Part shown: positions 2,459-24,915 of the stretch, one piece after another | Numbering within the stretch: the stretch's first letter is position 1 | Layout: each line of letters begins with the position of its first letter | IMG/VR virus record: IMGVR_UViG_3300044608_000519 | Coordinates: 1-25,718 of that record | Origin: a virus | DNA: 25,718 bases | Reading direction: 5' to 3' (one strand) | Notes under the pieces: generated by a model | Database searches by the model: none | Told to the model about the DNA's origin: nothing | The model's input: only the letters and a program-made list of their open reading frames with translations | Position numbers and translations under genes: made by a program

Positions 2459-5400
2459 TTATGCTTTTCTAGTACCAGCCAATGAACCACCGAATCTTTG
2501 TTGATCGCGAATAACATCAAGAACTGCTCCATATATTCTATTATTAAGATTATTAGATAATTCAACATCTTGTTGTTTATAAGAAGTATTGTTCGCGCCC
2601 ATTTGAATATTACCATCTCTATTTACTGTGGTATTAAAATTAAATGAATTACTAGCATTACTATTATTAACAGTATTAGAATTATTAGCAACTGGGGACA
2701 TTCCACCAGCTTGCATTCCTGTACCATATTTTTTAACAATTGGTGAATTATACAATCCACCCTCCATATAACCGGGAATTGTATCAGATAAACGAGAACC
2801 AATTAAACCACCTGTTTGACGACCATATCCAGTAAAACCACTAAATCCTGTTCTAACAACTTGAGGCCCAATATAAACACCACTTGGACTTAATAAACCT
2901 TTATTCATAAATCCTGTAATAGAAGATGATTCTGCTGCTGTTAAAGGTGCGCCTTGTTGTAATTTTTGAGACAAATTTTGAGCTTTTCCAGCTTTCACGT
3001 TAGCCATTTTATTACTTATTCCCGCACCAATTCCAGCAACAGCAACTGCTGCTGCCAAACTACCAACCATTTGCGCGGTTTGAGCTTGTCTTGCTCGTTT
3101 TTTCTGACGAGCTTCTTCAGCTTTTCTAATCTCCTCATCACGCAATTCTTTATATAAAGAACTATTTTCAAGACCAAAAGTAGTCATACCATCTTCCATA
3201 GCTTTAACATTGCTTAATTCTGCGCTAAATGATCCACCACTTGCGAATCTTGGTGCAGCAGAAAAATTTAAAGTGTCAAGCGCGGCTGGTCCACCCATTG
3301 CCATAACCGCATTTCTATTTAATACATATTCACCATTCTCAAGCATCGCTGGATATTTATCTCCAGATCCAGTTCCTGAAACATACATACCCGATTGTGC
3401 GCGTACAACACCACCTTTTTGAGCCGTAAATAGACTTTCAATTCCTGATCCACTTATCAATTTTGAAACACCAACTTCCATTAATCTACTACTAATAATA
3501 TCTAAGAAATTAGCAGCAACACCTAAAAGAGCATCGCCTAAATTATCTGTTTCTTTTACTGCTGCTTTGATGGCATTTACCATTCCATCTCTAAAAAGCG
3601 CTGGAGTATCTCTAGCTAATCTATTTAAACCGGTATCAGCTTCATCTCTTAAAGCGTCAAAACCTTCTTTGAATCCATAAACTATAGAAGTTGATCTTTT
3701 AGCATTTCTCAATTCTTCGTTATTAAGGCGTTTTGTTATTTCTTCTTCTTTTAGTTTGCCATTAACAATATCGTTTTGAACAGTCTTTAATTTTTCTAAT
3801 GTTCTGACTCTTTCATTTTCTAATGTTGGATCGGCAAATGGACTTTGTTGTAATTGAGATATAGCTTGAGATAGTGTTTGACTATTTGTTATATCTATAG
3901 ATTTTATATTTCTAGCTTGCTCTCTTAAACCGATAGCTTGCATTGGACGACCCTCAAATTCAGATTGAGCGGCCATTTTTGTTAAATTAGTTTGTTGTTT
4001 TTCGATTAATGATTGATAATCAGACTGAGCAGACTTTGATCTACTAATTTCTAAATCAACAAGTTTTTTTGTTGTTGTTTCATTTCGTAATGCAATTTTA
4101 GATTCAGCTTTTCCTATAACTCCTCTGCCTAGAAAATTACCTTGATCGGCCATTTTTCTTTCGATAGCGTCTATTTCTAATTCAGAATTTGTTTTTCTAG
4201 TAGCCTCGATTCTTTCTTGATCGCCTAATAATTGAATTTGTTTTTGCAATAATGTTGCTTGAAACTCTGTAGTTTTTGCGCGTATTTGTTCTACACGACC
4301 TTGTAAATCTGTTAATTTTAATTGATTGACATTGCTTCTATTTTGTTTGTCTACTGATCTGTTAAATTCTTCATAGATTTTTTTTAAATCATTAATAATT
4401 GCGGGATCAAATGGGCTTGGCCCTGTAATCGAACTTTCTTGTAATATCGCTTGAAGACCTGAAAGATCTCCAGTTTGCGCTTTCTCTAATGCTGGTCTTA
4501 TCTTACTTTGAATAACTTCAGAACTAGGATTTAATTTTAAAAATTTTTCTTGATTTTCTTTTACGAAATTTAAATTTAATTCTGTTAATTTATCTTGACC
4601 TTCTGATATTGTTTTTGTTCTTTGAGTTTTTAATTTTTCTGTAGCTATAGATAAAGGACTAAGAATACCTTCTGCCAATGAAAATTTAAAATTATTTATT
4701 TCATCTAAAAGCTTTCTGCCAAAATCATCTTGTTCTAATTGCGCATTTGCTTCGCCTATTTGTTTTAAAATAGATGAACTTAAATCATTTCTTAGTTTTA
4801 ATAAATTACCTTCTTTTCTAGCATTTTCTATAATATTATTTATAAATTGATTTCCAGAAGATAACTCTTTTAAAATTTCCTCCTTATCTTTTCTAAGCAA
4901 GAGTTCAAGAATAGATTCTTGAAAAATTTTTATTTGTTCTGCCGTGCCTTTATTTCCAATTGTCGATTTAGCTATATTCTCAGCTAATCGTTTAGCAGCA
5001 TTTGAACTCGCTTCGGTAACAACTTCAATTTCTTCAGGGACCGTCTCTTGACCAGGAATTATTTCAGGCATTATTTTTTCTCTTTGTAATTTAAAGGATT
5101 GAAGTTGATCAAACAAATCTTTATTTAATCCTAAAGATTTTAATTCTTTAACTCTTTCTCCAATCTGAACTCCCCCTTGAGTTTTTCCACCTTTAACCCC
5201 AGAAGCAAAAGACAACGCAGCAGTTAATATATTTTTATCAGTTTCGTACTTACTCAATACAGAATTTAAAGCTTCTACTCCACCTTTTGTTTTGCTCAGT
5301 TCATCTGCTAATTTAATATCTGTAATTTGATTAAATGATTCTGATAAACTTTTACTAGCTAATTCTAATTTATCAGACGAAGCGCCAGAAGCTAAAAGTT

Positions 5401-8400
5401 TTGCATATTCTTGTTGAGCTTGAATATATTTTTGACCAGCAGAAATATTTTGTTGACTATTTTGTCTTTGATTATCAGCCATTTCAGCAAGATCTTCAGC
5501 ACTTAATTCTGCTGCATTTAAAGCAGAAACGAAACCAACTAAAGCTCCAGTAGCAGCACCAACTCCTGCACCTATTGGCCCAAAAGCTGCACCAATACCA
5601 GCACCTGTAGAAACAGCGCTCAATCCAGTGCTTAAACCCGACTGAAGAGATCTTTCAGTAGCTGTCATTTCAGTTCTCTTTTTATTACCGAAAACAGCTT
5701 GTTCCGCAAAACCTGCGATAGTAGGACCAAGAATTGCTATTGCCGTACTAGCTTTAGATAATCCTTCTGAAAGTTTATCGAATCTATTATTTCCTTTAGA
5801 ATCGCTTGTGTTTATTTGTTCATTATTTCTACCTTTTTTAAAAGTTTGTTCTCTTAAACTTTTTATCGCATCTATTCCAACACTTGATACTGATGAATCA
5901 ACTTCAGAAAACATTGATTTTATTTTATCAACTGTTGATCTATAAGTCTTCTTAACATCTCTTAAAGCTTCTTTAGCGTAATTTTCAATATAACTTTCTA
6001 CTTCAACAGCATTGGAGCTTGATTGAGTATTTTGAGTTTGATTTTTTTTACCTTGCTTTTTTGGAGCAAAATTTGGAATATATCCTTTATTCATCAATCC
6101 AGCATTCTTCTGTCCTCTCATTGAATCACTCAAAGCATTTCCTAAACCACCATGATCAGCAATTGCGGAACTAAATGTTGGCTGACTACTGTTTCTAATG
6201 TGTGGGAAAGGCTTGGTATCGAATATGGCTTTTTCTCCGCTCATGCTTTCTTCTAAGCCCATTACTGCTTGTTTATATGCAAAGTTGGGAATAAAGCCTT
6301 CACTCAAACCAAACATTCCTTGATCATTAGGATAAGTCTTAGCAAATTCTGTCGCTAATTTACTAAATACGTCTGGATTATTTAAATTTAAATTTCTTTT
6401 CTTTGCTGTTTCTATTAGCCAATTTTTCTGAAAAGAGTTTCTTCCTTTTATGGAATTAAAATTAGGAATAAAACCTGAAGCATGAGAATTAATCAATTCA
6501 ATTAATGCCATATCTAATTTTGCGGCATTGTATTTATGACTAGCTATTCCACTTTCAAAATCAGACATCGCAATTTCCTTACCATTGATTAAAAGCTTAG
6601 AACTCTTAGCCATCTTCGCCCAAGACAATTGAGGAAAAATAGCTTTTGCGGGAATAGATTTGCCGCTCGCATAATCCGCCAAAGCTTGTTCTTGTGGTAA
6701 TAATACAGATTTAATAGTACTGCCAGAACCAATTTTTTCAGCAATGTTTCCATATAATTGAGACCCTAATCCTTGACCTCTAAATTTTTTACCAACTTCA
6801 ACGCCTTCGATTTCATAATTATTTTTGCCTGTTTTTATTGCCGATATATTTCCTTTTCCTTTTATAGAGGAAGATATCATTGAAGCAAAATTAGGAATAA
6901 AACCTCCATATGTAGTATTTTTCTTAGCTTCGTATCTTCTTAATAAACCATCAGTAACTTTTGTAAGTTTTGCGCTTATTGATGGATCAACATTTGAATA
7001 CTTATCTTTAACAATTGATGCAGCGGCCATTTCAAATTCGCTGAAATTTGCACCAGCATTTCTACCAGTAGGATCAGTAAATTTTGGTCTATTTGAAACA
7101 GCAATCATTGAGCTAACTTTCTTAGCTAATACTGGATTTTCTTTTTCGAGATTTGCAAGTTTTTTATTCATGAATCCAGTGACTGACCCAGAAACGTTTT
7201 TGAAATCTTGTTTCAACTCTAACATGCTATATGAACCATCAGCAATTCTATATAATAAATCAAAATCATTCTCATTTGCTATATCGCTTACAGGTTTATT
7301 TTTAAATCCAACTTCTGATGGTCTTATTACTTTTTTTGAACCTAAAGCTATATTTAATGCAGATCTAACAAAGTCTTCATGCAAGTAAGAAAGCATGTTA
7401 GCATTTCCTTTTTTAGCGTATTCATGATCTGAACCTCTTCCATAAGTAGGAAAATCTCCCATCTTAAAAAGATCTGTATCACCAGTAGCATTTTTATATT
7501 TACTAGAATATTTTTTGAACCAAGGAATACTTGCAGTAGTCATTGGTGTAGCAAAATTAGGAATAAAACCAGAACCATATACTCTATCTTGAGCAAATTG
7601 CATCTTTATTTTTCTTCTTAAAATAGGATTAAAGTCCAATTCAGAAACTCCATTTAATAAAGTCTTTTTAGCTGTAGTGTTTAGACTAGAAATAGAAGAG
7701 GTTTCTATTTGTTTTGGAACATCTGAACCTTCACCAATAATTTCTGTGTATCTTGGACGAATAAATAAATCTCCTAAAACATCTGGTTGAGAAATGATAG
7801 AGGTTTTATCATCAATTTTTAATCTTTTTGTTTTTGATCCTTGTTTTGGTGAATAAGCGTAATAATTCTGACCTATATGATTAATAACTTTACTTATATT
7901 TTCTGCGCTGGTATGCCCTAAACCAGAGTGTGCATCAGCAAAAGTATTCGATTGATATAGTTTTGGATTAAAATTTTTATTTATTGGTTTTTCTAAAACC
8001 TCTTTAAAATCTATAGGTTTATTGCGAGAAGGAGGAACTTTAATATCAAATCCAACAGATTGTTCAAATGCCCTACCTACTGAAAATTGAGATGGACTTT
8101 TTTTAACAAAATTAGGTATAAATCCATTAAACATATATGGATCAACACCTGTTCTACTTATAGCATTTTGTCTATGTGCGCGACCAGCTTTTGATCCAGC
8201 AGGAGGATTAATAAAAGGTTGAGCAAAACCGGGAATATATTTAACATCTTCCGCAGTATTCATTACTCCACCAACAGGAGACGAAACAACTCTGCCGGGA
8301 GCGTAGCCACCAGCTTGTGCGCCAACTACCTCTGCCATTCTTGTTGCAGCGGGAATATATCCTCCTGCGCGAGTAACTTGTAATCCACCAGATCCTTTTA

Positions 8401-10003
8401 CTCTTACTCCTTGAGTAGCTAATTGAGCGGCTAATTGTTTAGCAAGTGTAGACTGCATTTGATATTCTGCTGTCTGTTGTCTGGCTATTTGAAGCAATAA
8501 TTGTGCTTGCGCTGCTTGGTTACCCATCATTCCAGCAAGAGCTTGTGATGCTGGTCCTTGTTGCTGCATGATTTGCAAAATAGATTGTTCAATATTTTTT
8601 CTATTTTGTGTTTCTGTAGTAATACCAGCAATCTGAGGCAAAGCTTGAGATAGATAAGTAAAAGAATTCTGTATTAACTTAAAAAGAGTAAAAAATGCAG
8701 CAATAGCACCGGGACCAGCTATTACATTTCTAATACCTTTTAATAAACCATTCGCAAAAGTAGAACCAACTCCTTCTCCTTCAAGAATTTCATTCATTGA
8801 TTCAACGAATGATTTTAATTGCTCAGTACCGTATTTAGCCAATGGCTCAAATGTTACTTTGCCAATATTATTTGCCAACTGTTGAGTAGAAGTAGCAGTT
8901 TGTTTTAGCAAAGCGTCGAGAGTTTGATTTAATTTAGCAGTCGCGATTTCTGCTTCATTTGTTGCTGATGCGCCTCTTTGTAAAGCACCAGCATATGTAC
9001 CCTGCGATTTATTTAAATCATTAACAATTGCTTTTAAGATGTTAACTTGATAAACACCCGCAACTTGTTCTGACAATTGCGCTCTTTGTGCATCAGCTAA
9101 ACCTCTGTAAGCTCCAGCAAAGTTTTGTAGTATTTGAACAGCAGGTAAAATATTTCCTTGGACATCTCTAACAGAGATATTAAAAGCTTCCAACTGATCT
9201 AAAGTATCAGTACGTTGTAAACGAGTGAAAATTGTTTTTAGTGCGTTACCGATTACCGCGCCACCTCTTGCTGTGCTTTGTTGAGCTGAAGTAACCAATG
9301 CATTCAATTGATCTAAGCTTACTCCTGCTTCTTGAGCCGCTTGGCCTGTACGAGATAATGCTTCAGCAAGATCACCAGCGCCAACAGCATAATCTTGTTC
9401 TACTGCAACTAGCTTATTTAATATTTGAGTTGTAGTAATTCCAGTTGCAGCAAAACCGTTTACAGTAGAAGTTAAAGCGTCAACTGCATTTGCAGTTCCA
9501 ATTCCTGCTAATCTTGTTAATGTAAGAGCGTCTTTTGTTCTTTGTAATGTTTCTTCAGCTTTTAAACCTTGACGAGAGAATTCAAGAGCAGCTTTAGAAG
9601 CGTCATCAAATGAAGAAGCTGTTTGTTTAGTTACATTAAATAAATCTGTACTAAATTTTTGTAACTGACTGGTGGTTAAGCCGAATACACGATTAATGTC
9701 AGCAAGATTTTTTTCTACTTCTATAGTTACATTTGCCAACTCTTTAAAACTGCGAATGACACCACCAAGTACAGCAGTAGAAGCTCCGAATGCAATAACG
9801 CGAGCATTAGAAGCGGCTAGTGCTGCTTCAAAGTCTTTAACATCGCCCGTCATTCTGCCAAGAGGCTGAGAGAAAGCTCGCTGATTAACTGTCAAATTAA
9901 GCTGGTTATTCTGAGCGAATCTTTGATTATACGCTTGAACACCAGCTTGAATAGAAGCGGTTAATGCTGCTTGATTGGCCGCGACATTAATTTGAACTGC
10001 CAT
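2459..10003 (-). CDS. Tail tape measure protein with embedded enzyme-like domains
   Basis: At 2514 aa this is the largest protein of the window; it sets tail length and is threaded inside the tube. Residues about 30-370 match the phage tail tape measure core of the TP901/PhageMin_Tail type: long Ala/Gln/Thr-rich helices with the typical TSSFDDASKAALEFSRQGL and ARGGAVIGNALKTIFTRL stretches. Hydrophobic segments lie near residues 430-445, 1415-1440 and 1460-1495. Residues about 1500-2100 are coiled-coil-rich. The C-terminal part has the common tape-measure motif GGVVRAQSGMYVSG...ENGEYVLNRNAV near 2205-2240. Residues about 627-1313 are unusual: six GFIPNF[A/V/N] motifs separate five inserts, one GNAT-like and one nuclease-like. 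At about 0.15 nm per residue the whole chain would imply a tail near 375 nm, less if the inserts are globular. No lysozyme or peptidase domain is evident. ATG start in an AAATATGG context; two candidate chaperone genes lie just upstream. Confidence 0.9.
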   Translation of the reverse strand: MAVQINVAANQAALTASIQAGVQAYNQRFAQNNQLNLTVNQRAFSQPLGRMTGDVKDFEAALAASNARVIAFGASTAVLGGVIRSFKELANVTIEVEKNLADINRVFGLTTSQLQKFSTDLFNVTKQTASSFDDASKAALEFSRQGLKAEETLQRTKDALTLTRLAGIGTANAVDALTSTVNGFAATGITTTQILNKLVAVEQDYAVGAGDLAEALSRTGQAAQEAGVSLDQLNALVTSAQQSTARGGAVIGNALKTIFTRLQRTDTLDQLEAFNISVRDVQGNILPAVQILQNFAGAYRGLADAQRAQLSEQVAGVYQVNILKAIVNDLNKSQGTYAGALQRGASATNEAEIATAKLNQTLDALLKQTATSTQQLANNIGKVTFEPLAKYGTEQLKSFVESMNEILEGEGVGSTFANGLLKGIRNVIAGPGAIAAFFTLFKLIQNSFTYLSQALPQIAGITTETQNRKNIEQSILQIMQQQGPASQALAGMMGNQAAQAQLLLQIARQQTAEYQMQSTLAKQLAAQLATQGVRVKGSGGLQVTRAGGYIPAATRMAEVVGAQAGGYAPGRVVSSPVGGVMNTAEDVKYIPGFAQPFINPPAGSKAGRAHRQNAISRTGVDPYMFNGFIPNFVKKSPSQFSVGRAFEQSVGFDIKVPPSRNKPIDFKEVLEKPINKNFNPKLYQSNTFADAHSGLGHTSAENISKVINHIGQNYYAYSPKQGSKTKRLKIDDKTSIISQPDVLGDLFIRPRYTEIIGEGSDVPKQIETSSISSLNTTAKKTLLNGVSELDFNPILRRKIKMQFAQDRVYGSGFIPNFATPMTTASIPWFKKYSSKYKNATGDTDLFKMGDFPTYGRGSDHEYAKKGNANMLSYLHEDFVRSALNIALGSKKVIRPSEVGFKNKPVSDIANENDFDLLYRIADGSYSMLELKQDFKNVSGSVTGFMNKKLANLEKENPVLAKKVSSMIAVSNRPKFTDPTGRNAGANFSEFEMAAASIVKDKYSNVDPSISAKLTKVTDGLLRRYEAKKNTTYGGFIPNFASMISSSIKGKGNISAIKTGKNNYEIEGVEVGKKFRGQGLGSQLYGNIAEKIGSGSTIKSVLLPQEQALADYASGKSIPAKAIFPQLSWAKMAKSSKLLINGKEIAMSDFESGIASHKYNAAKLDMALIELINSHASGFIPNFNSIKGRNSFQKNWLIETAKKRNLNLNNPDVFSKLATEFAKTYPNDQGMFGLSEGFIPNFAYKQAVMGLEESMSGEKAIFDTKPFPHIRNSSQPTFSSAIADHGGLGNALSDSMRGQKNAGLMNKGYIPNFAPKKQGKKNQTQNTQSSSNAVEVESYIENYAKEALRDVKKTYRSTVDKIKSMFSEVDSSVSSVGIDAIKSLREQTFKKGRNNEQINTSDSKGNNRFDKLSEGLSKASTAIAILGPTIAGFAEQAVFGNKKRTEMTATERSLQSGLSTGLSAVSTGAGIGAAFGPIGAGVGAATGALVGFVSALNAAELSAEDLAEMADNQRQNSQQNISAGQKYIQAQQEYAKLLASGASSDKLELASKSLSESFNQITDIKLADELSKTKGGVEALNSVLSKYETDKNILTAALSFASGVKGGKTQGGVQIGERVKELKSLGLNKDLFDQLQSFKLQREKIMPEIIPGQETVPEEIEVVTEASSNAAKRLAENIAKSTIGNKGTAEQIKIFQESILELLLRKDKEEILKELSSGNQFINNIIENARKEGNLLKLRNDLSSSILKQIGEANAQLEQDDFGRKLLDEINNFKFSLAEGILSPLSIATEKLKTQRTKTISEGQDKLTELNLNFVKENQEKFLKLNPSSEVIQSKIRPALEKAQTGDLSGLQAILQESSITGPSPFDPAIINDLKKIYEEFNRSVDKQNRSNVNQLKLTDLQGRVEQIRAKTTEFQATLLQKQIQLLGDQERIEATRKTNSELEIDAIERKMADQGNFLGRGVIGKAESKIALRNETTTKKLVDLEISRSKSAQSDYQSLIEKQQTNLTKMAAQSEFEGRPMQAIGLREQARNIKSIDITNSQTLSQAISQLQQSPFADPTLENERVRTLEKLKTVQNDIVNGKLKEEEITKRLNNEELRNAKRSTSIVYGFKEGFDALRDEADTGLNRLARDTPALFRDGMVNAIKAAVKETDNLGDALLGVAANFLDIISSRLMEVGVSKLISGSGIESLFTAQKGGVVRAQSGMYVSGTGSGDKYPAMLENGEYVLNRNAVMAMGGPAALDTLNFSAAPRFASGGSFSAELSNVKAMEDGMTTFGLENSSLYKELRDEEIRKAEEARQKKRARQAQTAQMVGSLAAAVAVAGIGAGISNKMANVKAGKAQNLSQKLQQGAPLTAAESSSITGFMNKGLLSPSGVYIGPQVVRTGFSGFTGYGRQTGGLIGSRLSDTIPGYMEGGLYNSPIVKKYGTGMQAGGMSPVANNSNTVNNSNASNSFNFNTTVNRDGNIQMGANNTSYKQQDVELSNNLNNRIYGAVLDVIRDQQRFGGSLAGTRKA
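6086..6454 (-). other. Tape-measure inserts 4 and 5 (residues ~1184-1306), small modules
   Basis: Two short segments are separated by the GFIPNFA at 6278-6298. The first (about 52 residues) is helical and basic, with NSFQKNWLIETAKKRN near its start. The second (about 64 residues) contains MSGEKAIFDTKPFPHIRNSS and then SAIADHGGLGNALSDSM. The His, Asp and Gly pattern is distinctive, but I cannot tie it to an enzyme family. They have no evident catalytic motif and may be recognition or cleavage tags. Confidence 0.3.
6476..6883 (-). other. Tape-measure insert 3 (residues ~1041-1176), GNAT acetyltransferase-like domain
   Basis: Between the third and fourth intact GFIPNF motifs is a 136-residue domain with a strand (NNYEIEGVEVG) running into FRGQGLGSQLYGNIAEKI. 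That is the R/Q-x-x-G-x-G/A acetyl-CoA pyrophosphate loop plus helix of GNAT enzymes (motif A, residues 1074-1080). A strand IKSVLLP and then QEQALADYASG follow, in the position where GNATs have the strand and helix of motif B. The length is close to a minimal GNAT fold. Known GNATs modify small molecules or protein amines; the substrate here cannot be inferred. I see no stop or break, so it is translated as part of the tape measure. Confidence 0.6.
6905..7549 (-). other. Tape-measure insert 2 (residues ~819-1033), PD-(D/E)XK nuclease-like
   Basis: Between the second and third intact GFIPNF motifs lies a 215-residue segment with a helix (LHEDFVRSALNIALG), then NENDFDLLYRIADGSYSMLELKQDF in two strand-like stretches. 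Aspartates at residues 913 and 915, followed by E929-L-K931, fit the spacing of a PD-(D/E)XK nuclease core (D, 10-20 residues, E-x-K). A helical Lys-rich region and a strand-like IAVSNRP follow. The call rests on motif spacing and predicted order only. Confidence 0.45.
7571..8104 (-). other. Tape-measure insert 1 (residues ~634-811), possible nuclease-like domain
   Basis: This segment lies between the first two intact GFIPNF motifs. It is mixed alpha/beta and charged, unlike the Ala/Gln-rich helices before it. It begins with SVGRAFEQSVGFDIK, followed by NKPIDF and then NTFADAHSGLGHTSAENI. An AFE helix followed by a short strand ending in ID could be the start of a restriction-endonuclease-like fold, but no convincing E-x-K follows. 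The domain is therefore unassigned, with nuclease-like only one option. Confidence 0.35.
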
Positions 10004-15654: not shown

Positions 15655-16191
15655 TTAACCATTAAAGCTTGGCATTGGAGGAAATGACGGTAAAGAAATA
15701 TTAGAAGCTGAAGTTGGAATCGTGGGCCAAACAGCTTGAGTGATATCAGGTACGTCAAGCATACTTCTTAACTGTTGTCTAAAAGTTTTAAAATCATTTT
15801 TAGCAACATCAGAGATTGGCGCATCACTTAATTGCGTAAAATCAGTCAACAAAAGATACTGATCTCTTGTCATTCTTATACTAGATTTGATTCTATTGAT
15901 TCTTATTTCTTCTTCTGATGGTGTAACGTCAACTACAGTATAATTTTCTTGGCATGTTTTATTTTGTGTGTTTAGTGTCCATGATGTTTCTATTTTTTGA
16001 TGAATATTAATTGTTGGAAGCGGATCGCTATTTACAACCCAAAATCCTTCGTTGTTTCCAGACCATGATAAATCAGCTAATTTATCATCAGGTAACACAA
16101 AAATATTAGATATGTTTTTATAACTTGTAGGAAGCGGCGCTGGTGTAGAAACTATTTCGTTATTTACTACTAAAACGTATTTTTTATCCAT
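15655..16191 (-). CDS. Phage_tail_APC-like tail fibre assembly chaperone
   Basis: The 178-aa protein has a strand-rich first half (VLVVNNEIVSTPAPLP) and a C-terminal segment near residues 100-160 with RDQYLLLTDFTQLSDAPIS, then FRQQLR and finally AVWPTIP. This matches the pattern of the phage tail assembly chaperone family (Phage_tail_APC: a D-W/F-T-Q-L-x-D-x-P motif, then a Y/F-R-x-x-L-R helix, then W-P). The protein probably helps fibres fold or attach. Its location just downstream of the fibre genes agrees. The tail is Pro/Ser-rich. It starts one base after the stop of the preceding gene. Confidence 0.65.
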   Translation of the reverse strand: MDKKYVLVVNNEIVSTPAPLPTSYKNISNIFVLPDDKLADLSWSGNNEGFWVVNSDPLPTINIHQKIETSWTLNTQNKTCQENYTVVDVTPSEEEIRINRIKSSIRMTRDQYLLLTDFTQLSDAPISDVAKNDFKTFRQQLRSMLDVPDITQAVWPTIPTSASNISLPSFPPMPSFNG

Positions 16192-16797: not shown

Positions 16798-17757
16798 TTA
16801 TGCGCCACTATTACTAGTTATCCACCCAGAATTTGTATCACCTGTAGTATAACTATTGTTAGTCCAAGTTTCTGTAGAAAAAGTAAGTTTATGATAAACT
16901 CTATTTAATGTAAAATTTCTATATCCAGTCCATACATATCCAACAGTTGCTGTTGCGCTCGCTACTCCTTGAAATAATTGTAAACTACCTTCTGGACTAT
17001 TTGTTCCTGTAGATTTAGTTTCGGTTGCAAAAGTTAATTTAATATTACTTGCGTTTGTTACCGTTGCTCCATTGGCTCTATATCCCCAAAGAGAATTTGA
17101 AAAAGCATATCCTTGAGCCATATTAGATGACTCAGTTATACTTGTGTTTGATGCTGTATCTGTATTCATTGCATACTTGTATATCGTATTTGTGCTTCCA
17201 TTTCCTGTAGTATAACCACCTAAAATATATGCATTATTACTTTCATACATTCCAACACTAACATGTCGAGCGGCTGTAATTGCTGTAGCATTAGTAGCTG
17301 TATCGTTTGATGTTGTTATGTAAGTTGTGTCAGTTCTATATTGACCAAGTGAATCACTATAGCCGCCCATCATATATATACGCGACTTAGTAAGATGTGG
17401 CAAATTATTTGTCGCGCCTCTTCTTTCTACAGTAAAAGATACAACAGCAGTGCTTTGAGAATCACTTGCAGCAAGTATTTTATTTTTGGTTGTAATAAGA
17501 CCAGATTGAAAACCGTTTATATGATAAATATTTGTAGAACTAAAACCTCCTGCTCCTTGAGATATTCTTGGACCAGTATTCGCATTTCTTGTGGACTCAC
17601 TATCTGTACTAAAAGATATTGTTCTATTATATCCGACACCACTGTTTCCTCCTGTCACATCTCCAAATAAAAAATATGCAGATCCAAAACCAGTAACTTG
17701 AGTACTAGCTCCTATTGGAATAGTTTGAGCTTTAGTTGGTCCAAGAAATTTAATCAT
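16798..17757 (-). CDS. Kelch-like beta-propeller virion protein, candidate receptor-binding component
   Basis: This 319-aa protein shows about six related segments of 40-50 residues: a hydrophobic strand ending in an aromatic-Gly(-Gly) pair, a Gly/Ser/Asn loop, and a strand with T/S-D-T/S-x-T/S. Examples are SRIYMMGGYSDSLGQYRTDT, NNAYILGGYTTGNGSTNTIY and VGYVWTGYRNFTLNRVYHKL followed by TFSTET. This is the pattern of kelch-type repeats, so a six-bladed propeller is plausible. Propellers in phage fibres usually bind surface glycans or proteins. The gene follows the giant fibre by 6 bp. No Shine-Dalgarno sequence (ATAATAATATATG). Confidence 0.5.
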   Translation of the reverse strand: MIKFLGPTKAQTIPIGASTQVTGFGSAYFLFGDVTGGNSGVGYNRTISFSTDSESTRNANTGPRISQGAGGFSSTNIYHINGFQSGLITTKNKILAASDSQSTAVVSFTVERRGATNNLPHLTKSRIYMMGGYSDSLGQYRTDTTYITTSNDTATNATAITAARHVSVGMYESNNAYILGGYTTGNGSTNTIYKYAMNTDTASNTSITESSNMAQGYAFSNSLWGYRANGATVTNASNIKLTFATETKSTGTNSPEGSLQLFQGVASATATVGYVWTGYRNFTLNRVYHKLTFSTETWTNNSYTTGDTNSGWITSNSGA

Positions 17758-17763
17758 ATATTA

Positions 17764-20700
17764 TTATAGATTTTGACCTACAATGATTGCATAAATATTA
17801 GTGCCGCCATCATAAGTAACAAATTGATAAATATCGCGTTTAGAACTTGCGGTTGTAAGAGTTGGGGCTGTACCTCCAGGCCATTTTACTGCGGCTGGCC
17901 AAGTTATTGAATAACCAACACCACCGCCAACTGTTACAATTGTCCACATATGAACAATACCGCTTGCTTGAATATTTGATAAAGTTAATGTTGTTATTGT
18001 TGCGGCGAGAGTTAATTCTGTTACGTTATATTGAGTATTAATTGTTGTTGAAGCTGTTGCAGATACAGCTACTCTTTCACCAAAAGTATTTCTTGTTCTT
18101 ACTAATAATAAATTACTAGTAGAATTTGGATCTAAATAATAACCAGTATCATTGTTATCATAAAATATTGGCGCTCTCATATCAGCACTAGCAATTGCAA
18201 CGCCACTTTGATTTACAGTAAATACATTAGATCCTCCTGAATTTCTATAAATAAGCAAATCAGCAGCTTGAATGTACCAATGATTTGAATGATATTGTAT
18301 TTTACCTGAAAATTCTCCATCCCAAGTTGAAGAATCAGATCTCCATGAACCAACTGTTCTCAATGATGTTGTTGAATTAGGATCAAGATAATAGCCAGTA
18401 TTATTACTATCGTAGAAAATTGGCGCTCTAAAAGAAGAAGCGACCCAATTATTTCCAGACATGTCTAATTCCCAACGATTTGCGGATGCGCTCCAGCCAC
18501 CAATACGCATTATATTGTCTGGATCTAATCCCATATTAACAGCATAATATCCTCCACGATGGAATGACATACCTGCTGCACCAGCGTCATTTGAAAATGC
18601 TTGCAAAGCGTAATTGCTATTAGCTCCAACTGTAGATGTAGAGCCTTTATCAGATCTAAAATAATTTACGCCAGTTAATGTATTAGTAGTTCCAGTATAA
18701 ACACCATTTGTAACAGTAGCAGCGTTGCCATCAATGCTTATTCCTGTTAATGTTTGACTTGCGGATGATCTATTAATTGCAACTGATGTTGTACCAATAA
18801 ACATCGTTTGATTAGTTGCGGCAGCACCTAACTCAGCAAGACTCCAAGAAACGCTTGCGCTACCATCTACTGATTTACCTGTTGAACCAATGGTTATTGT
18901 TCTTGCTGTACCCCAAGTAGCGGTGGTGATCGCAGCAGAACCATTAAAAGATGTTCCATTAATATTTCTTGCAGTTTGCAAAGTTGTGGCTGTAGTTGAA
19001 TTTCCGCTTAAAGCAGCAGTAATTGTACCTGCTGAAAAATTACCAGAACTATCTCTTAAAACAATTGTATTTACTGTATTAGCTGTAGCAGAAGCATATC
19101 CATCCAATAAATCTGCATCTAATCCTGAACCAGCACCATCATTGTTATTATGCCAAAATCTATTCCAAGTTCCAGCGGTGCCATTTGTGGTCGTTCTAGT
19201 ATAAATATCTCCTAGATTTCCACCAGTCATTCTTATAGCTAGAGTATTACTATAATAAGTGACAGGATCGCCATGACCCATACGAATAGCATTATACCAC
19301 TCTCCATCTGGATTTAATGTTGTATTGCCAGAAACTTGCCAATATTGCAATTTATTGCCACCTACATTCCCCGTATTAGAATCAACGCTTCCAGAACCTC
19401 CGCTTACACTTCCAGTAATAGTATTAGCTACAGTTAAACCAACAATATTACTTGTGCTATTTGGATCAACATAATAAGCTGTATTATTAATATCATAAAA
19501 CGATTGAGCGTAAATAGTATTTACAACTCTTACATTGCTGTCAAGACTTCCAACTGAAAAGATTTCTGTTCCATTACCAAAAGCATTATTGTAAAATCGT
19601 ACGCCACCATAATTAGGATAGGCTCCTATTCTTATTCCAGTGTGCCAGTTTAATGCAAGCTTAGAATAATTCCCTCCGACATTCTCCATTGTGGTAAATA
19701 TTCTATAATATCCGCTATTTTCATCTCCACCAAATGTTATACCATTACCAAACCCTTCACCCGCAGCAGAACTATATGGCGTTGAGCCAGTAGCGCCGAA
19801 ATTTATTCTAGTAAATGTTTTTGCTCCTCCTATTGATTGATCTCCTGTAGTATAAACACCATTTGTAACAGTAGCAGAATTACCAGTACAAGAACCAGCA
19901 GTAGCTACTGTTTGAGATCCAATATTACCACTATGAATCATCTCTACCCAACTTCTTAAATTTGGCCAAGCGCTTCTCCAAAAAAATCTATTATCAGCTT
20001 CTCCAGCACAAAGCATCTGGAAACCATATGCTTGTGAATTATTTACATGATTATAATGGAAACCCTGAAGTCCTACATAATGAGTTGAACCCCCTGGAGC
20101 ATTTGCTGGGCTGCTCCAACTATCAATAAAACCAGAACCCCAATTAGAAAACATGACATTACAATCAACAGTACCATAACCCATTGTACCATTACGATAT
20201 AATGATGAACCATTATATCTATTAACATAAGGTGAATTGACATGCATTGAATTCATGTCATTATAAGACATAGTAAGAGTACTAAACTTGTTTAAGTTAG
20301 AAGTACCTGCGGGATCTAGATAAAAAGCTGTATCGTCACTATCGTAGAAAATTGGCGCACGAACATCAGATCTTACCGTTAATCCACCAAATAAATGATT
20401 AGCAACAGTTGAAACTGTTGCACTAGTTGCTGCTCCTTGATTTCCTCTTACTTCTTGACCACTAGCAATTTCTATAGAATTAGCGGGTGTTGTTAATTGC
20501 TCAGTAAGAGAAGAATAATATATAGTTGGAGATCCAAGTTTACTTATAACTTTCCAAGTTTTATAAGATGACCATTCTGCTGCGGTTAACAACCAAACAT
20601 CATTGTTATTATCAACACGAATCAGTATTTGCATACTGTCTCCATTTAGTTTTTCTAACTTAACACTAAATGTTTGACTATTAAATGCAGAAACAGAAAG

Positions 20701-23700
20701 TAGAGCGAGACCGAAAGGATTATAATTTACATCTGTTTTGTATGTTATTAATATGGCTGCATGTGTATTGCCACCACCAACATTTGCAATTTTTGTCCAA
20801 TAAAAACTCATTGCACTTCCACTCCAGTAATAAGTATTACCAGAACCACCGGGAAGATTTTCTCTATTAGTTATACTTACTAAATTACTTCCACTATTCG
20901 GATCTACATAGTAACTAGTATCATTACTATCATAGAATATTTGCGCTCTCATTGACGATCCATCAGCCAATGAATAATCTCCACCGACAACTCTTAATCT
21001 CCAATTACCATCTTGATTTAAAATTCCTACATGATTATTGGTATCTGCATAAAAATATCCACGAACTGTTCCGTTGTGTCCTCCAGTTCTTAACCTTATT
21101 CCTTGTGCGCTTGCAGAACTTGCAATATTCCAATAATTAGCGCTATCAGAATAAAAATGTTGTCCAGTTGTTTCATTGTATAAACCATTACCACTACTAT
21201 TATTTCTGAACCAACCACCAGTATAATATTGCGCTGCTGTTATATTACCGGCTGCGGTAATGGCATTCAAGTTGCTTGTGCTAGCGGGATCACAATAATA
21301 ACCTGTATTGTCCCAATCATAAAAAAGTGTTCCACGAATATCGCCTGGAGTTCTAAAACTTCCTCCTCCCCACGCGCCTTTGAACACGCCATTTTGTAGT
21401 ATTAATAATCCGTGATCTGCTAAATTTGCAGCGACACCACCAAAATTGGGATGCGACCAAGCTAGTCCATATAAAGTGCCAACTCCTGTTCCATCTGCGG
21501 TTAATTTATAAGAGTTACCCATTGCAAATACACCTTGCAATCTAGTAGCAGAATATAAACCAACTACAGTATTTCCATAATTGTCATCTATATAAAAATC
21601 ACCATTTGCTCTTGTTGCTTTTGTTGCGAGAGTTGTTGTTGCTGAATTTCCATCGATACTAACTCCAGTAAGAGTTTGAGAAGCTGATGATCTATTGATA
21701 GCAACAGACGTTGTACCAATGAACATTGTTTGATTAGTTGCTGCCGCACCTAATTCAGCAAGGTTCCAAGAAACGTTTGCGCTACCATCTACGGATTTAC
21801 CTGTGGAACCGATAGTCAATGTTCTTGCTGTACCCCAAGTTGCAGTGGTAATGGCAGCAGAACCGTTGAAAGAGGTTCCATTGATGTTTCTAGCTGTTTG
21901 TAGTATTGTCGCTGTTGCCGCATTACCAGTACATGAAGCAGAGCTTCCACCAGCATTACCTGTGATGCTTCCAGTTATTGTATTTACTACGGTTAAACCA
22001 ACTAAATTACTAGTACTCGCAGCATCAATATAATAAGAAGTATTATCACTATCATAAAAAATAGGCGCTCTAAAACTATATCCAGATTGAATATAACCAC
22101 TTGAATACGCAATCATATTTGTTATTTGTGTACCTCCTGCTTTTGTCCAAAAATGTAAATTACCAGTAGCCCAACCATTTGCAGTACCCGCTGTCTTTTG
22201 AGCGGCCAAACCTGCAATACTTACCGTATTTCCAGCACCAGCGGCTTCTCTACTACCCATCGATAATTTTGTCCAAGTGTTATTTGTGCCATTTAAATTG
22301 TAAATAAATAATCCTACAGGAGCTTGATCAATTGCTCCAGTAGCTGAATTATCTTTTCTTATTATTAATGGAGGAGATTGCAAATAACTACTACTAGCAT
22401 CAACATAAGAATCATACATCTGAACATTGTTGCTAGAAGTTAATCCGCCAATACCCATCGAAGAAATTAACGAAAAACTAGCAGGATCAATATAATAAGT
22501 AGTATCACCACTGTCGTAAAAAATAGGCGCACGAAAATCACTTGATGCAAATCCAGTTCCACCGACATGTAAACTAAAAGAAGCGTAATTATCACCACCA
22601 GTTGTTGTTCTTATATTACCAGAAGAATCTATAGTAAACACTCCAGAATCACTATTGTTTCTGAATATAAAATTATTAGCTGTTTTTACATATGTAGTGC
22701 CGCTGCTTTCAAAATAAAATCTTCCTTTGCCTTCTACTGATGTATGCCAAACTCCTGTAGCAGCATTCATATTATTCAAAGTAGATAAACTCAAAGCATT
22801 TATAACAGAAGTGCCTGCTGCATTTATGTAAAAAGCGGTATTATCTGAATCGTAGTATATTGGCGAACGAATATCTGTTGATGCAGTGACCACACCAGTG
22901 CCAGTATTAATAGAAAATACTGAAGATCCATAATAATTAGAAAAACTTGGATCTTGAGCGTTACCTTCCCAAATTTGCCTCTTGAAAGTAAAAGTAGTTG
23001 GTCCAGAGTTTGCACCATACAACATTATTTCTTGCAAATTATCACCAGCACCAATTGGCATAATGCCGCCAGATTCACTACCATTACCGAAACCAAGACC
23101 ATAAGGAGCAGGACGATCTCCAGTTGTTCTATACATTGCTGGAGGACAGAATCCTCTTATTTCTAAGAATGTAGGACCACTTGGAGAAACTAATCCTGTG
23201 ACTGTTTCTATATCTACATTTGACGAATTTTTTGATCTACGAGATCCAACTGTATAAGCCAATGTTCCAAAAGTCATTGTTCCTGCAACAGTAAGATTAT
23301 TTAAATTACTAGTGCTTGCTGGATCGCAATAATAAGCAGTATTTCCTGCGTCATAAAATGTATTAGCATATAAAGATCCTGTACTAGATTGTATGTATAC
23401 TGATGCACAAGAATAAGCTAATGTTGTTGAAGTTCCAGCGCCCCAAAGAACTGGGTATGCTGTAGAGTCGGTTCTACTTGGCGAATAAGTTACTGTACCT
23501 GAATTACCATCAATATTTATACCAGTTAAACTTTGAGAAGCAGATCCTCTATTTAAAGCTATTGCAGTTGTTCCTATATAAACCGTACTATTTCCTAAAA
23601 CACCTGATGGAATCGTTCCGCTAAGATTTCCTGCTGTTAAAGTAGATGCTGTTGTTAATGCGGTATTTCCACCAACAGTCAAAGCATTTAAAACAGATGT

Positions 23701-24915
23701 ACCAGCGGCATCAATATAATATGCAGTATTGTTAGAGTCGTAAAAAATAGGAGCGCGAACTGAACCGTTTGCATAAACAATTCCTGAACCTACACTTCCT
23801 ACTCCATAACCAGTTCCTAAACTTAATCCTACTCCAATATTATTATTGAAAGTGAAATTACCCCAACCATCGGATCTAAATAAACCTTCTTGAGTAACAT
23901 CGGTTCTTGTGGTTCTTATTATAGATCCTTCGTTATCCTTAACATAGTAAACATAATTTCCAGCACTATCTGCGCCTAATTTTATATTACCACGAACATC
24001 TAATACCTGAGTAGGACTTACAGTACCTATACCAACATTACCACTAGAAAGAATACTAAATCTATCAAGAAAACTACCACCATGATTAAATGTATAATGT
24101 AAACCAGAAGTATTTGTAGCGCCAGTCTGAACAAATTTTATATCAAGCATTGCATTTGCAGTTCCACCGTTTGGATTTACTCTAAATCCTAAAACAGCCA
24201 TTGCATTTGTTGTCGAACTTTCGTTAACAATAGATAGCATTCTATCTGTATCACCAACATCAGTATTAGCTGCGAAAGTACTATTATCTGTAAATCCAAC
24301 AGTTAAACCAGAAGTCGATCTAGAAGCCGCACCACCAATTCTTGTACTAGCTGCTACTATTAATGCATTTAAATTACTAGTACTTGCGGCATCTAAATAA
24401 TAACCAGTATTATCACTATCATAAAAGATTGGTGATCTAAAAGATCCTGGCTCTAATGTATAATTACTATATTTTGATAATTCACCAGTCGTAGCTCCAC
24501 CACCAAAAATTCTTGTTAACGCAGAAGTGCTTCCTGAATTACCATAACCTATATACATACCATCTGTAGTAGCATTATTACGCATAACTCTCATGTTAGC
24601 GTATACATCGCTACTTGCTGTATCAAACGCACTAAATATTCTTAAACTAGATAAATTAGAAACACTGTTTGGATTAACATAATAAGCAGTGTCGTTGGAA
24701 TCATAAAAAATAGGAGCGCGAAAATCAGAACCCGCTGACACAGTTCCATTATCATAAAAGACAGTATTGTTGGCGTCATTGGCATTTCTTATGACAAAGA
24801 CAGTGCTACCATTTGTAGTTAATGCTTTTATATCTAATCTGAACCCAGGATTGATATTTCCTATACCGACGTTGCCGCTTGAATTTTTAAATGTTGGATA
24901 ATATGTAATAGGCAT
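17764..24915 (-). CDS. Giant tail fibre protein with FYDS/YY repeats
   Basis: This 2383-aa protein starts with YPTFKNSSGNVGIGNINPGF, a fibre VGIG-type motif. It then carries 13 copies of a 23-residue module (consensus RAPIFYDSNNTAYYVDPNST with SNL after it), spaced 252-1083 bp apart. The sequences between modules differ and are Gly/Asn/Ser/Thr-rich and beta. Two 84-residue blocks are near duplicates. The C-terminus (AVKWPGGTAPTL, then KRDIYQFVTYDGGTNIYAII) looks like a small beta tip domain; I see no S74 peptidase chaperone at the end. The protein would form a very long trimeric fibre for host adsorption. No membrane segments or signal peptide. It begins 4 bases after the upstream fibre stop, in an AACAATATG context. 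Confidence 0.85.
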   Translation of the reverse strand: MPITYYPTFKNSSGNVGIGNINPGFRLDIKALTTNGSTVFVIRNANDANNTVFYDNGTVSAGSDFRAPIFYDSNDTAYYVNPNSVSNLSSLRIFSAFDTASSDVYANMRVMRNNATTDGMYIGYGNSGSTSALTRIFGGGATTGELSKYSNYTLEPGSFRSPIFYDSDNTGYYLDAASTSNLNALIVAASTRIGGAASRSTSGLTVGFTDNSTFAANTDVGDTDRMLSIVNESSTTNAMAVLGFRVNPNGGTANAMLDIKFVQTGATNTSGLHYTFNHGGSFLDRFSILSSGNVGIGTVSPTQVLDVRGNIKLGADSAGNYVYYVKDNEGSIIRTTRTDVTQEGLFRSDGWGNFTFNNNIGVGLSLGTGYGVGSVGSGIVYANGSVRAPIFYDSNNTAYYIDAAGTSVLNALTVGGNTALTTASTLTAGNLSGTIPSGVLGNSTVYIGTTAIALNRGSASQSLTGINIDGNSGTVTYSPSRTDSTAYPVLWGAGTSTTLAYSCASVYIQSSTGSLYANTFYDAGNTAYYCDPASTSNLNNLTVAGTMTFGTLAYTVGSRRSKNSSNVDIETVTGLVSPSGPTFLEIRGFCPPAMYRTTGDRPAPYGLGFGNGSESGGIMPIGAGDNLQEIMLYGANSGPTTFTFKRQIWEGNAQDPSFSNYYGSSVFSINTGTGVVTASTDIRSPIYYDSDNTAFYINAAGTSVINALSLSTLNNMNAATGVWHTSVEGKGRFYFESSGTTYVKTANNFIFRNNSDSGVFTIDSSGNIRTTTGGDNYASFSLHVGGTGFASSDFRAPIFYDSGDTTYYIDPASFSLISSMGIGGLTSSNNVQMYDSYVDASSSYLQSPPLIIRKDNSATGAIDQAPVGLFIYNLNGTNNTWTKLSMGSREAAGAGNTVSIAGLAAQKTAGTANGWATGNLHFWTKAGGTQITNMIAYSSGYIQSGYSFRAPIFYDSDNTSYYIDAASTSNLVGLTVVNTITGSITGNAGGSSASCTGNAATATILQTARNINGTSFNGSAAITTATWGTARTLTIGSTGKSVDGSANVSWNLAELGAAATNQTMFIGTTSVAINRSSASQTLTGVSIDGNSATTTLATKATRANGDFYIDDNYGNTVVGLYSATRLQGVFAMGNSYKLTADGTGVGTLYGLAWSHPNFGGVAANLADHGLLILQNGVFKGAWGGGSFRTPGDIRGTLFYDWDNTGYYCDPASTSNLNAITAAGNITAAQYYTGGWFRNNSSGNGLYNETTGQHFYSDSANYWNIASSASAQGIRLRTGGHNGTVRGYFYADTNNHVGILNQDGNWRLRVVGGDYSLADGSSMRAQIFYDSNDTSYYVDPNSGSNLVSITNRENLPGGSGNTYYWSGSAMSFYWTKIANVGGGNTHAAILITYKTDVNYNPFGLALLSVSAFNSQTFSVKLEKLNGDSMQILIRVDNNNDVWLLTAAEWSSYKTWKVISKLGSPTIYYSSLTEQLTTPANSIEIASGQEVRGNQGAATSATVSTVANHLFGGLTVRSDVRAPIFYDSDDTAFYLDPAGTSNLNKFSTLTMSYNDMNSMHVNSPYVNRYNGSSLYRNGTMGYGTVDCNVMFSNWGSGFIDSWSSPANAPGGSTHYVGLQGFHYNHVNNSQAYGFQMLCAGEADNRFFWRSAWPNLRSWVEMIHSGNIGSQTVATAGSCTGNSATVTNGVYTTGDQSIGGAKTFTRINFGATGSTPYSSAAGEGFGNGITFGGDENSGYYRIFTTMENVGGNYSKLALNWHTGIRIGAYPNYGGVRFYNNAFGNGTEIFSVGSLDSNVRVVNTIYAQSFYDINNTAYYVDPNSTSNIVGLTVANTITGSVSGGSGSVDSNTGNVGGNKLQYWQVSGNTTLNPDGEWYNAIRMGHGDPVTYYSNTLAIRMTGGNLGDIYTRTTTNGTAGTWNRFWHNNNDGAGSGLDADLLDGYASATANTVNTIVLRDSSGNFSAGTITAALSGNSTTATTLQTARNINGTSFNGSAAITTATWGTARTITIGSTGKSVDGSASVSWSLAELGAAATNQTMFIGTTSVAINRSSASQTLTGISIDGNAATVTNGVYTGTTNTLTGVNYFRSDKGSTSTVGANSNYALQAFSNDAGAAGMSFHRGGYYAVNMGLDPDNIMRIGGWSASANRWELDMSGNNWVASSFRAPIFYDSNNTGYYLDPNSTTSLRTVGSWRSDSSTWDGEFSGKIQYHSNHWYIQAADLLIYRNSGGSNVFTVNQSGVAIASADMRAPIFYDNNDTGYYLDPNSTSNLLLVRTRNTFGERVAVSATASTTINTQYNVTELTLAATITTLTLSNIQASGIVHMWTIVTVGGGVGYSITWPAAVKWPGGTAPTLTTASSKRDIYQFVTYDGGTNIYAIIVGQNL
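18724..18975 (-). repeat. 84-residue fibre block, copy B
   Basis: This is the second copy of the block at 21646-21897. Only four residues differ (L/I, N/S, N/S, V/I). A shorter relative, YIGTTAIALNRGSASQSLTG followed by INIDGN, lies at 23503-23580 in the same gene. Confidence 0.88.
21646..21897 (-). repeat. 84-residue fibre block, copy A
   Basis: This block encodes TARNINGTSFNGSAAITTAT and continues to QTLTGVSIDGN. It pairs with copy B at 18724-18975: 80 of 84 residues are identical by my count, while about 43 of 252 bases differ. Confidence 0.88.
23503..23580 (-). repeat. Partial third copy of the IGTT-x-AINR fibre block
   Basis: This 26-residue segment (YIGTTAIALNRGSASQSLTG then INIDGN) matches the C-terminal third of the 84-residue blocks at 18724 and 21646. 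It lacks their N-terminal TARNINGTSF part. Confidence 0.75.

What the first reader, a model, noticed from the sequence alone, without database searches (positions are those of the whole stretch)
6065..8125. Tape measure carries a modular cassette bounded by repeated GFIPNF[A/V/N] motifs
Six copies of a seven-residue motif, plus degenerate forms upstream, punctuate residues 589-1313 of the tape measure and separate five compact segments that differ in composition from the flanking helical ruler. The intervals of 178, 215, 136, 52 and 64 residues look like domain sizes. Synonymous differences between copies show the motif is kept at protein level. One reading is a cargo rack: enzyme domains held inside the tail by a common linker, anchor or processing motif and delivered to the cell with the DNA. 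Tape measures are known to carry lytic domains, but a motif-delimited series of non-lytic enzyme-like domains is not a described system as far as I know.
Basis: partly seen in the sequence, partly recalled or inferred. Interest (0 to 1): 0.88.

Follow-up and report, generated by a model that had tools for sequence, protein, structure and literature searches.

The report
Swappable enzyme cassette in phage ruler
A protein that normally just sets the length of a virus tail also carries a row of interchangeable enzyme-like parts, joined by one repeated short motif and swapped between related viruses exactly at that motif, which suggests that these viruses carry a customisable set of enzymes in the tail and inject it with their DNA.

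Summary
The 2514-aa tape measure protein (TMP; window 2459-10003, minus strand) has six G[FY]IPNF motifs at residues 627-1307. The same motif was found in hundreds of uncultivated viral contigs. Of 154 motif ORFs with an intact N-terminus, 147 match this TMP family. The 661 unique inter-motif segments fall into 125 sequence families. Close relatives are 90-98% identical up to a motif and then carry an unrelated domain: seven families follow the same upstream sequence after motif 1. DNA identity switches within about 15 nt of the motif. Motif codon usage equals background, so selection acts on the protein. The cassette varies in length while the ruler stays within 1.5% among near relatives. A PD-(D/E)XK nuclease-like segment is in 94 of 100 complete cassettes. 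Other slots hold GNAT, staphylococcal-nuclease, GHKL-ATPase and nucleotidyltransferase domains, plus P-loop-, HAD-, kinase- and ART-like ones. The window carries two nuclease-like domains (one lacking the catalytic lysine), a GNAT and two small segments. Best explanation: a TMP-borne polyvalent effector array delivered with the DNA, with the motif as linker and recombination seam. Delivery, enzyme activity and the motif's biochemical role are inferred. The AlphaFold models failed.

The parts
2459..10003 (-). Tape measure protein, 2514 aa
   Evidence: PF10145 E=9.1e-27; phrog_4211 E=4.8e-46
9056..9634 (-). PhageMin_Tail domain, residues 124-316
   Evidence: Pfam match
8126..8362 (-). Leader segment with degenerate motif (GYIPAA, residue about 548) up to motif 1
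   Evidence: Relatives have GYIPNA or GHIPAF at the same place
8105..8125 (-). Motif copy 1, GFIPNFV, residue 627
7571..8125 (-). Segment 1 (185 aa): PD-(D/E)XK-like, FE..IDF..DAH, catalytic lysine replaced by H or Y
   Evidence: hhalign 94.8% to a family with DAK that links to the main nuclease-like family
7550..7570 (-). Motif copy 2, GFIPNFA, residue 812
6905..7570 (-). Segment 2 (222 aa): PD-(D/E)XK-like nuclease; E876, D915, E929-x-K931
   Evidence: E, D and K invariant in 18 homologues down to 28% identity, acidic residue two before K
6884..6904 (-). Motif copy 3, GFIPNFA, residue 1034
6476..6904 (-). Segment 3 (143 aa): short GNAT acetyltransferase domain, loop RGQGLG
   Evidence: PF00583 E=0.002; BLASTP E=1e-12 to the L080 segment that passes the PF00583 cut-off
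6455..6475 (-). Motif copy 4, GFIPNFN, residue 1177
6299..6475 (-). Segment 4 (59 aa): small, probably helical, optional segment
   Evidence: Present in L003, L009, L019, absent in L006 and L018; helices in the only part of the weak model with pLDDT near 70
6278..6298 (-). Motif copy 5, GFIPNFA, residue 1236
6086..6298 (-). Segment 5 (71 aa): conserved terminal segment, last before the ruler
   Evidence: Last segment in 37 of 39 members of its family
6065..6085 (-). Motif copy 6, GYIPNFA, residue 1307
2462..6085 (-). C-terminal ruler part, residues 1307-2514
   Evidence: Length 1203-1221 aa in near relatives while the cassette varies from 477 to 680 aa

Best explanation
The tape measure protein doubles as a polyvalent effector carrier. 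Between its N-terminal domain and its C-terminal ruler it holds a tandem array of independently exchangeable globular modules. The core module is a PD-(D/E)XK-like nuclease; optional extras include GNAT, SNase, nucleotidyltransferase, P-loop, HAD-, kinase- and ART-like domains. Modules are joined by an Ala/Ser-rich GFIPNFA linker. Recombination between genomes at this linker swaps, adds or deletes whole modules in frame, so the payload evolves fast while N-terminus and ruler stay intact. The TMP is packed in the tail lumen and leaves ahead of the genome, so the modules reach the host cell first, where they would cut host or competitor DNA and modify host proteins. Shown here: TMP identity, motif-bounded modularity, seam position, protein-level conservation of the motif, the enzyme family of some modules, and cassette length varying independently of ruler length. 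Inferred: packing in the tail, delivery, enzymatic activity and targets.
For: TMP identity of motif ORFs 147/154; 125 segment families between motifs; most segments either 90-97% identical or unrelated between relatives with 93-98% identical flanks; DNA identity switches at the motif; seven families behind the same upstream sequence; motif codon usage equals background; catalytic-type residues conserved in nuclease-like segments; Pfam matches to GNAT, SNase, nucleotidyltransferase and GHKL ATPase; nuclease-like module in 94 of 100 complete cassettes; ruler length constant while the cassette varies.
Against: No direct evidence of packing or delivery. No confident structure. Segment 1 lacks the catalytic lysine. 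57 of 100 cassettes carry no extra module, only leader, nuclease-like and terminal segments, so a structural role of the core segment is possible. Several labels (HAD, kinase, ART) rest on short motifs.
Confidence: 0.66

Rival explanations
1. The motif is a specific processing site: a phage or host protease cuts the TMP at GFIPNFA so that modules are released as separate proteins, in the virion or on entry. This adds to the best explanation rather than replacing it.
For: Small residues at -3 to -1 and a strict core; strong conservation of a linker is more than flexibility needs; polyvalent proteins are thought to be processed by metallopeptidases (PMC5512222); one cassette family carries an HExxH-like HELFH stretch (L080, one search set).
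Against: No protease is identified in the window; zincin-like modules are rare in the set; no proteomics.
Confidence: 0.25
2. The modules are structural: folded beads, plugs or channel parts of the tail lumen that are needed for assembly or DNA passage, and their enzyme-like folds are relics.
For: Segment 1 lost the nuclease lysine; the nuclease-like core segment is nearly universal and often the only module; the motif could bind tube or chaperone.
Against: Catalytic-type E, D and K are kept in the core families at about 20% identity; rapid swapping between unrelated enzyme families is not expected of a structural part; cassette length does not follow ruler length.
Confidence: 0.2
3. The motif is only a recombination seam: short shared DNA that lets modules be exchanged, with no role as protein.
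For: Exchanges resolve within about 15 nt of the motif.
Against: Codon choice within the motif equals background, so the DNA itself is not held constant; synonymous differences between copies in the window.
Confidence: 0.08
4. The nuclease-like segments are selfish, homing-type elements that promote their own exchange between TMP genes.
For: Nuclease genes often lie at boundaries of genetic exchange in phages (title and abstract of PMC10448857); nuclease-like segments are near universal here.
Against: They are in-frame parts of a long protein without splicing domains, the swapped modules are often not nucleases, and several nuclease families alternate in one slot.
Confidence: 0.05
5. Artefact of assembly or chimaeric contigs.
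For: Nearly all sequences are metagenomic.
Against: The same junctions and families recur in contigs from many independent metagenomes and in MAG contigs; shuffled expectation is zero.
Confidence: 0.01

Closest known systems
Polyvalent proteins of phages and conjugative elements (Iyer et al. 2017, PMC5512222)
   Same: Many disparate domains in one polypeptide thought to be injected with DNA; their catalogue includes ARTs, kinases, GNATs, nucleases and metallopeptidases.
   Different: That paper does not mention tape measures (0 occurrences). Here the carrier is the TMP, and one short motif bounds every module and is the exchange seam.
Sle1-type effectors of contractile injection systems (PMC13277306)
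   Same: TMP-related modular effector with exchangeable functional domains, packaged inside a tail-like particle.
   Different: Bacterial injection system, swappable C-terminal domain; here a phage TMP with up to seven or more serial internal modules and a motif seam.
Tape measure proteins with lytic domains
   Same: Enzyme domain inside a TMP (general knowledge; Rpf- or lysozyme-like domains in siphophages).
   Different: Modules here are non-lytic, serial, motif-delimited and rapidly exchanged.
Polymorphic toxins (PMC3482391)
   Same: Toxin or effector domains exchanged by recombination onto a conserved carrier.
   Different: Those exchange C-terminal toxin domains (abstract). Here modules are internal and serial; immunity genes were not looked for.
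Domain shuffling in phage proteins (Smug et al. 2023, PMC10684548)
   Same: Mosaic signal in TMPs at sequence level.
   Different: Those authors could not confirm genuine recent mosaicism in TMPs; here near-identical backbones with swapped modules show it directly.

Membership tests
Tape measure protein | TMP domain or profile match | tested here: met
   PF10145 E=9.1e-27 and nine PHROG TMP families at E<1e-11
Tape measure protein | Long protein beside tail genes | tested here: met
   2514 aa; weak tail-tube match in the next gene 1557-2456 (PF18906 E=5e-4, below its cut-off) and fibre-like ORFs nearby
Tape measure protein | Determines tail length | not testable with these tools
   Needs virions
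Polyvalent protein | Several domains of disparate activity in one polypeptide | tested here: met
   Window: nuclease-like plus GNAT. Relatives: more kinds
Polyvalent protein | Delivered into the host with the DNA | not testable with these tools
   Inferred from the carrier being a TMP
Polyvalent protein | Shares the domain families catalogued for that class | tested here: inconclusive
   GNAT shared; no direct profile comparison with the published domains was made
PD-(D/E)XK nuclease (segment 2) | E, D and (D/E)xK conserved in order | tested here: met
   E65, D104, K120 of the segment invariant in 18 sequences, acidic at 118
PD-(D/E)XK nuclease (segment 2) | Restriction-endonuclease-like fold | tested here: inconclusive
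   Model pLDDT 47, no PDB match
PD-(D/E)XK nuclease (segment 1) | Catalytic lysine | tested here: not met
   DAH or DAY in its family; so only called nuclease-like
GNAT acetyltransferase (segment 3) | GNAT profile and acetyl-CoA loop | tested here: inconclusive
   Loop RGQGLG present; homologue L080 above the PF00583 cut-off; the window itself at E=0.002, 18.7 against a cut-off of 20.7 bits

The most novel reading that the evidence does not exclude
A widespread lineage of uncultivated phages uses its tape measure protein as a programmable injection cartridge: GFIPNFA is a dedicated signal (cleavage, anchoring or unfolding and refolding) that lets unrelated enzyme modules be loaded in series and released individually in the host, with module choice turning over by recombination at the same signal.
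Probability: 0.3. Interest if true: 0.93.

Novelty: new variant of a known kind. Interest (0 to 1): 0.83.

Why it matters
It gives a concrete, testable case of a tape measure protein as carrier of a modular effector payload. It also provides the kind of recent, motif-seamed TMP mosaicism that a systematic survey (PMC10684548) could not confirm. The motif is a handle for finding many unknown virion-borne nucleases and host-modifying enzymes in environmental phages. No cassette homologue was found in 50,697 phage genome records by three tblastn queries, so this biology seems to lie in uncultivated viruses.

Tried and rejected
AlphaFold2 on segments 1-2 (pLDDT 47) and segments 3-5 (pLDDT 39) was too weak to give folds; Foldseek of the first gave nothing with E<=0.001. 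hmmsearch of segment profiles against the PDB gave only a P-loop link; the main nuclease-like family's matches to lectins and albumin are weak and look spurious, and the HAD-like and kinase-like profiles had no significant match, so those labels rest on motifs only. One mixed alignment of the whole cassette misplaced modules and was not used for folding. Phage-record searches with cassette regions: none. Double-motif pattern in genome contigs: none; a profile of the terminal segment found seven MAG contigs. Scans for relatives of the GNAT and of segment 1 gave few extra loci. Literature searches for the motif or for TMP payloads found no description (one search was too broad to be of use). Rejected: chance repeat; assembly chimaera; motif as DNA-only seam. 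One continuous helical ruler is disfavoured by the module swaps but was not excluded by a confident structure.

Full report
1. Observation. The minus-strand ORF at 2459-10003 encodes 2514 aa and is a tape measure protein (PF10145 E=9.1e-27; phrog_4211 E=4.8e-46). G[FY]IPNF occurs at residues 627, 812, 1034, 1177, 1236 and 1307. The copies use different synonymous codons.

2. How general it is. A scan of viral contigs with the whole TMP gave 21 loci. Of 154 long motif ORFs with an intact N-terminus, 147 match an HMM of this TMP's N-terminal part. Two of the seven exceptions look like terminase genes with a chance match (my reading of their sequence); the others carry one or two motifs near the C-terminus. 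In the first motif set, exact GFIPNF occurred 303 times against 0.0 in shuffled sequences.

3. Modularity. Splitting at the motif gave 661 unique segments in 125 sequence families. Against the window, L006, L003, L018, L009 and L004 have 93-98% identical N-terminal flanks, and most of their segments are either 90-97% identical or unrelated (L004 segment 1, 63%, is a diverged homologue). L006 lacks segments 3 and 4 cleanly. L018 has a 96% identical GNAT segment but unrelated segments 1 and 2. L003 replaces the GNAT by an ART-like segment plus an 85-aa segment. At DNA level, identity falls from about 14/15 to about 5/15 within about one 15-nt bin of the motif at each changed junction. Behind upstream sequence at least 90% identical to the window's, seven different families follow motif 1; some of these are remotely related to each other by profile. 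The start of the ruler is exchanged at the last motif as well.

4. The motif. From 377 unique contexts the consensus is [A][AS]x-G-[FY]-[IV]-P-N-F-A. P is invariant, G, N and F nearly so, and A or S is at -2 in 309 of 377. Codon usage in the motif is close to that of the ORFs. It is therefore conserved as protein, not as a DNA repeat, although its DNA is where exchanges resolve. In the AlphaFold model the motif residues have very low pLDDT, compatible with a flexible linker, but the whole model is weak.

5. Architecture. Of 100 complete cassettes, 94 hold at least one member of a nuclease-like superfamily. The commonest form is leader - nuclease - terminal segment (33), then nuclease - terminal (14) and nuclease - nuclease - terminal (10). 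Up to five extra modules, from 52 families in all, are added. The largest nuclease-like family has invariant G, F, E, D and K in the pattern GxxFE..D..(D/E)xK over 38 sequences at mostly 20-25% identity. The window's segment 2 has E, D and K invariant over 18 homologues. The window's segment 1 is linked by profile to a DAK family (94.8%), which is linked to the large family (90.9%), but it has H or Y in place of K, so it may be inactive. The direct profile link of segment 2 to the large family is short (44 columns), so segment 2 is counted in the superfamily by its own signature.

6. Other modules. SNase (2e-9), GNAT (6.7e-8), HIGH nucleotidyltransferase-associated (6e-8) and GHKL ATPase (3.8e-5) are Pfam matches (SNase and one GNAT are above curated cut-offs, the nucleotidyltransferase). 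PHROG matches include polynucleotide kinase, cytidyltransferase and endonuclease. A P-loop family matches a PDB phosphate-loop protein at 5e-7. HAD-like (DWDGT, invariant D15, D17 and T19), kinase-like and ART-like labels rest on sequence motifs, and for the ARTs also on a profile link between two families (95.9%). The window's GNAT is weak by itself (E=0.002) but clearly homologous to the stronger L080 GNAT.

7. Length. The N-terminal part is about 540-550 or 625-630 aa in most complete ORFs. The cassette ranges widely (mostly about 200 to 1000 aa) without significant correlation to ruler length (Spearman 0.18, p=0.15; a few rows with stray C-terminal motifs included, sequences not corrected for relatedness). 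In the window, L004, L006, L008 and L009 the ruler is 1203-1221 aa while the cassette is 477-680 aa; some other relatives have longer or shorter rulers. So the cassette is most simply read as not part of the length measure.

8. Mechanism. A TMP sits in the tail lumen and leaves before the DNA (general knowledge). Variable, catalytically conserved enzyme modules in that position are best read as a payload that acts at the start of infection. The near-universal nuclease-like module suggests that cutting host or competing DNA is the core job, with optional host-modifying enzymes. Delivery and activity are inferred.

9. Known relatives. It works like a polyvalent protein (PMC5512222) and like Sle1-type TMP-derived effectors of bacterial injection systems (PMC13277306), but differs from both in being a motif-seamed serial array inside a phage tape measure. 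A survey of phage protein mosaicism reported that it could not confirm genuine recent mosaicism in TMPs (PMC10684548). No paper found in the held open-access library describes this system; subscription papers and preprints were not covered.

10. Verdict. Observation confirmed. Cargo interpretation partly supported: modularity is established, enzyme content is supported to different degrees for different modules, delivery and motif function are not shown. New variant of a known kind; high interest.

Noticed in passing
window 17764-24915 (-): Giant 2383-aa fibre-like ORF with many repeats of the type FYDSNNTAYYVDPNSTSNL (visible in the translation).
   Followed up: no
window 16798-17757 (-): Kelch-repeat-like protein (PF24681 E=1.7e-6, below its cut-off) among the fibre genes.
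   Followed up: no
window 15655-16191 (-): Phage_tail_APC match above its cut-off (PF16778 E=4.3e-8) near the fibre genes, far from the TMP.
   Followed up: no
window 2459-6085 (-), start of the ruler: The first part of the ruler after the last motif is itself exchanged between close relatives, so ruler types may also be swapped at the motif.
   Followed up: partly
L336 (+), ORF of 4202 aa from about base 3587; L337: Very long TMP with nine motifs on contigs binned in a Halobacteriovorax MAG; most of its segments were not compared with the families.
   Followed up: partly
L044:5042-6769 (-): 576-aa inter-motif segment that reads like a GHKL/HSP90-type ATPase (RESLQNA, DVGTGM, GLSGFGMG); probably the HATPase_c match.
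   Followed up: partly
L080:428-1411 (-): Segment with HELFH (zincin-like HExxH), followed by a DWDGT (HAD-like) stretch behind a variant motif RFLPNFA.
   Followed up: no
L067:4163-6166 (-): 668-aa segment combining a P-loop-like stretch and a HIGH-type nucleotidyltransferase-associated match (PF16581 E=1.4e-7).
   Followed up: no
L165:3714-9170 (+), also L198, L216, L240: A different long ORF of about 1820-1830 aa carries one GFVPNFA near its C-terminus and does not match this TMP family.
   Followed up: no
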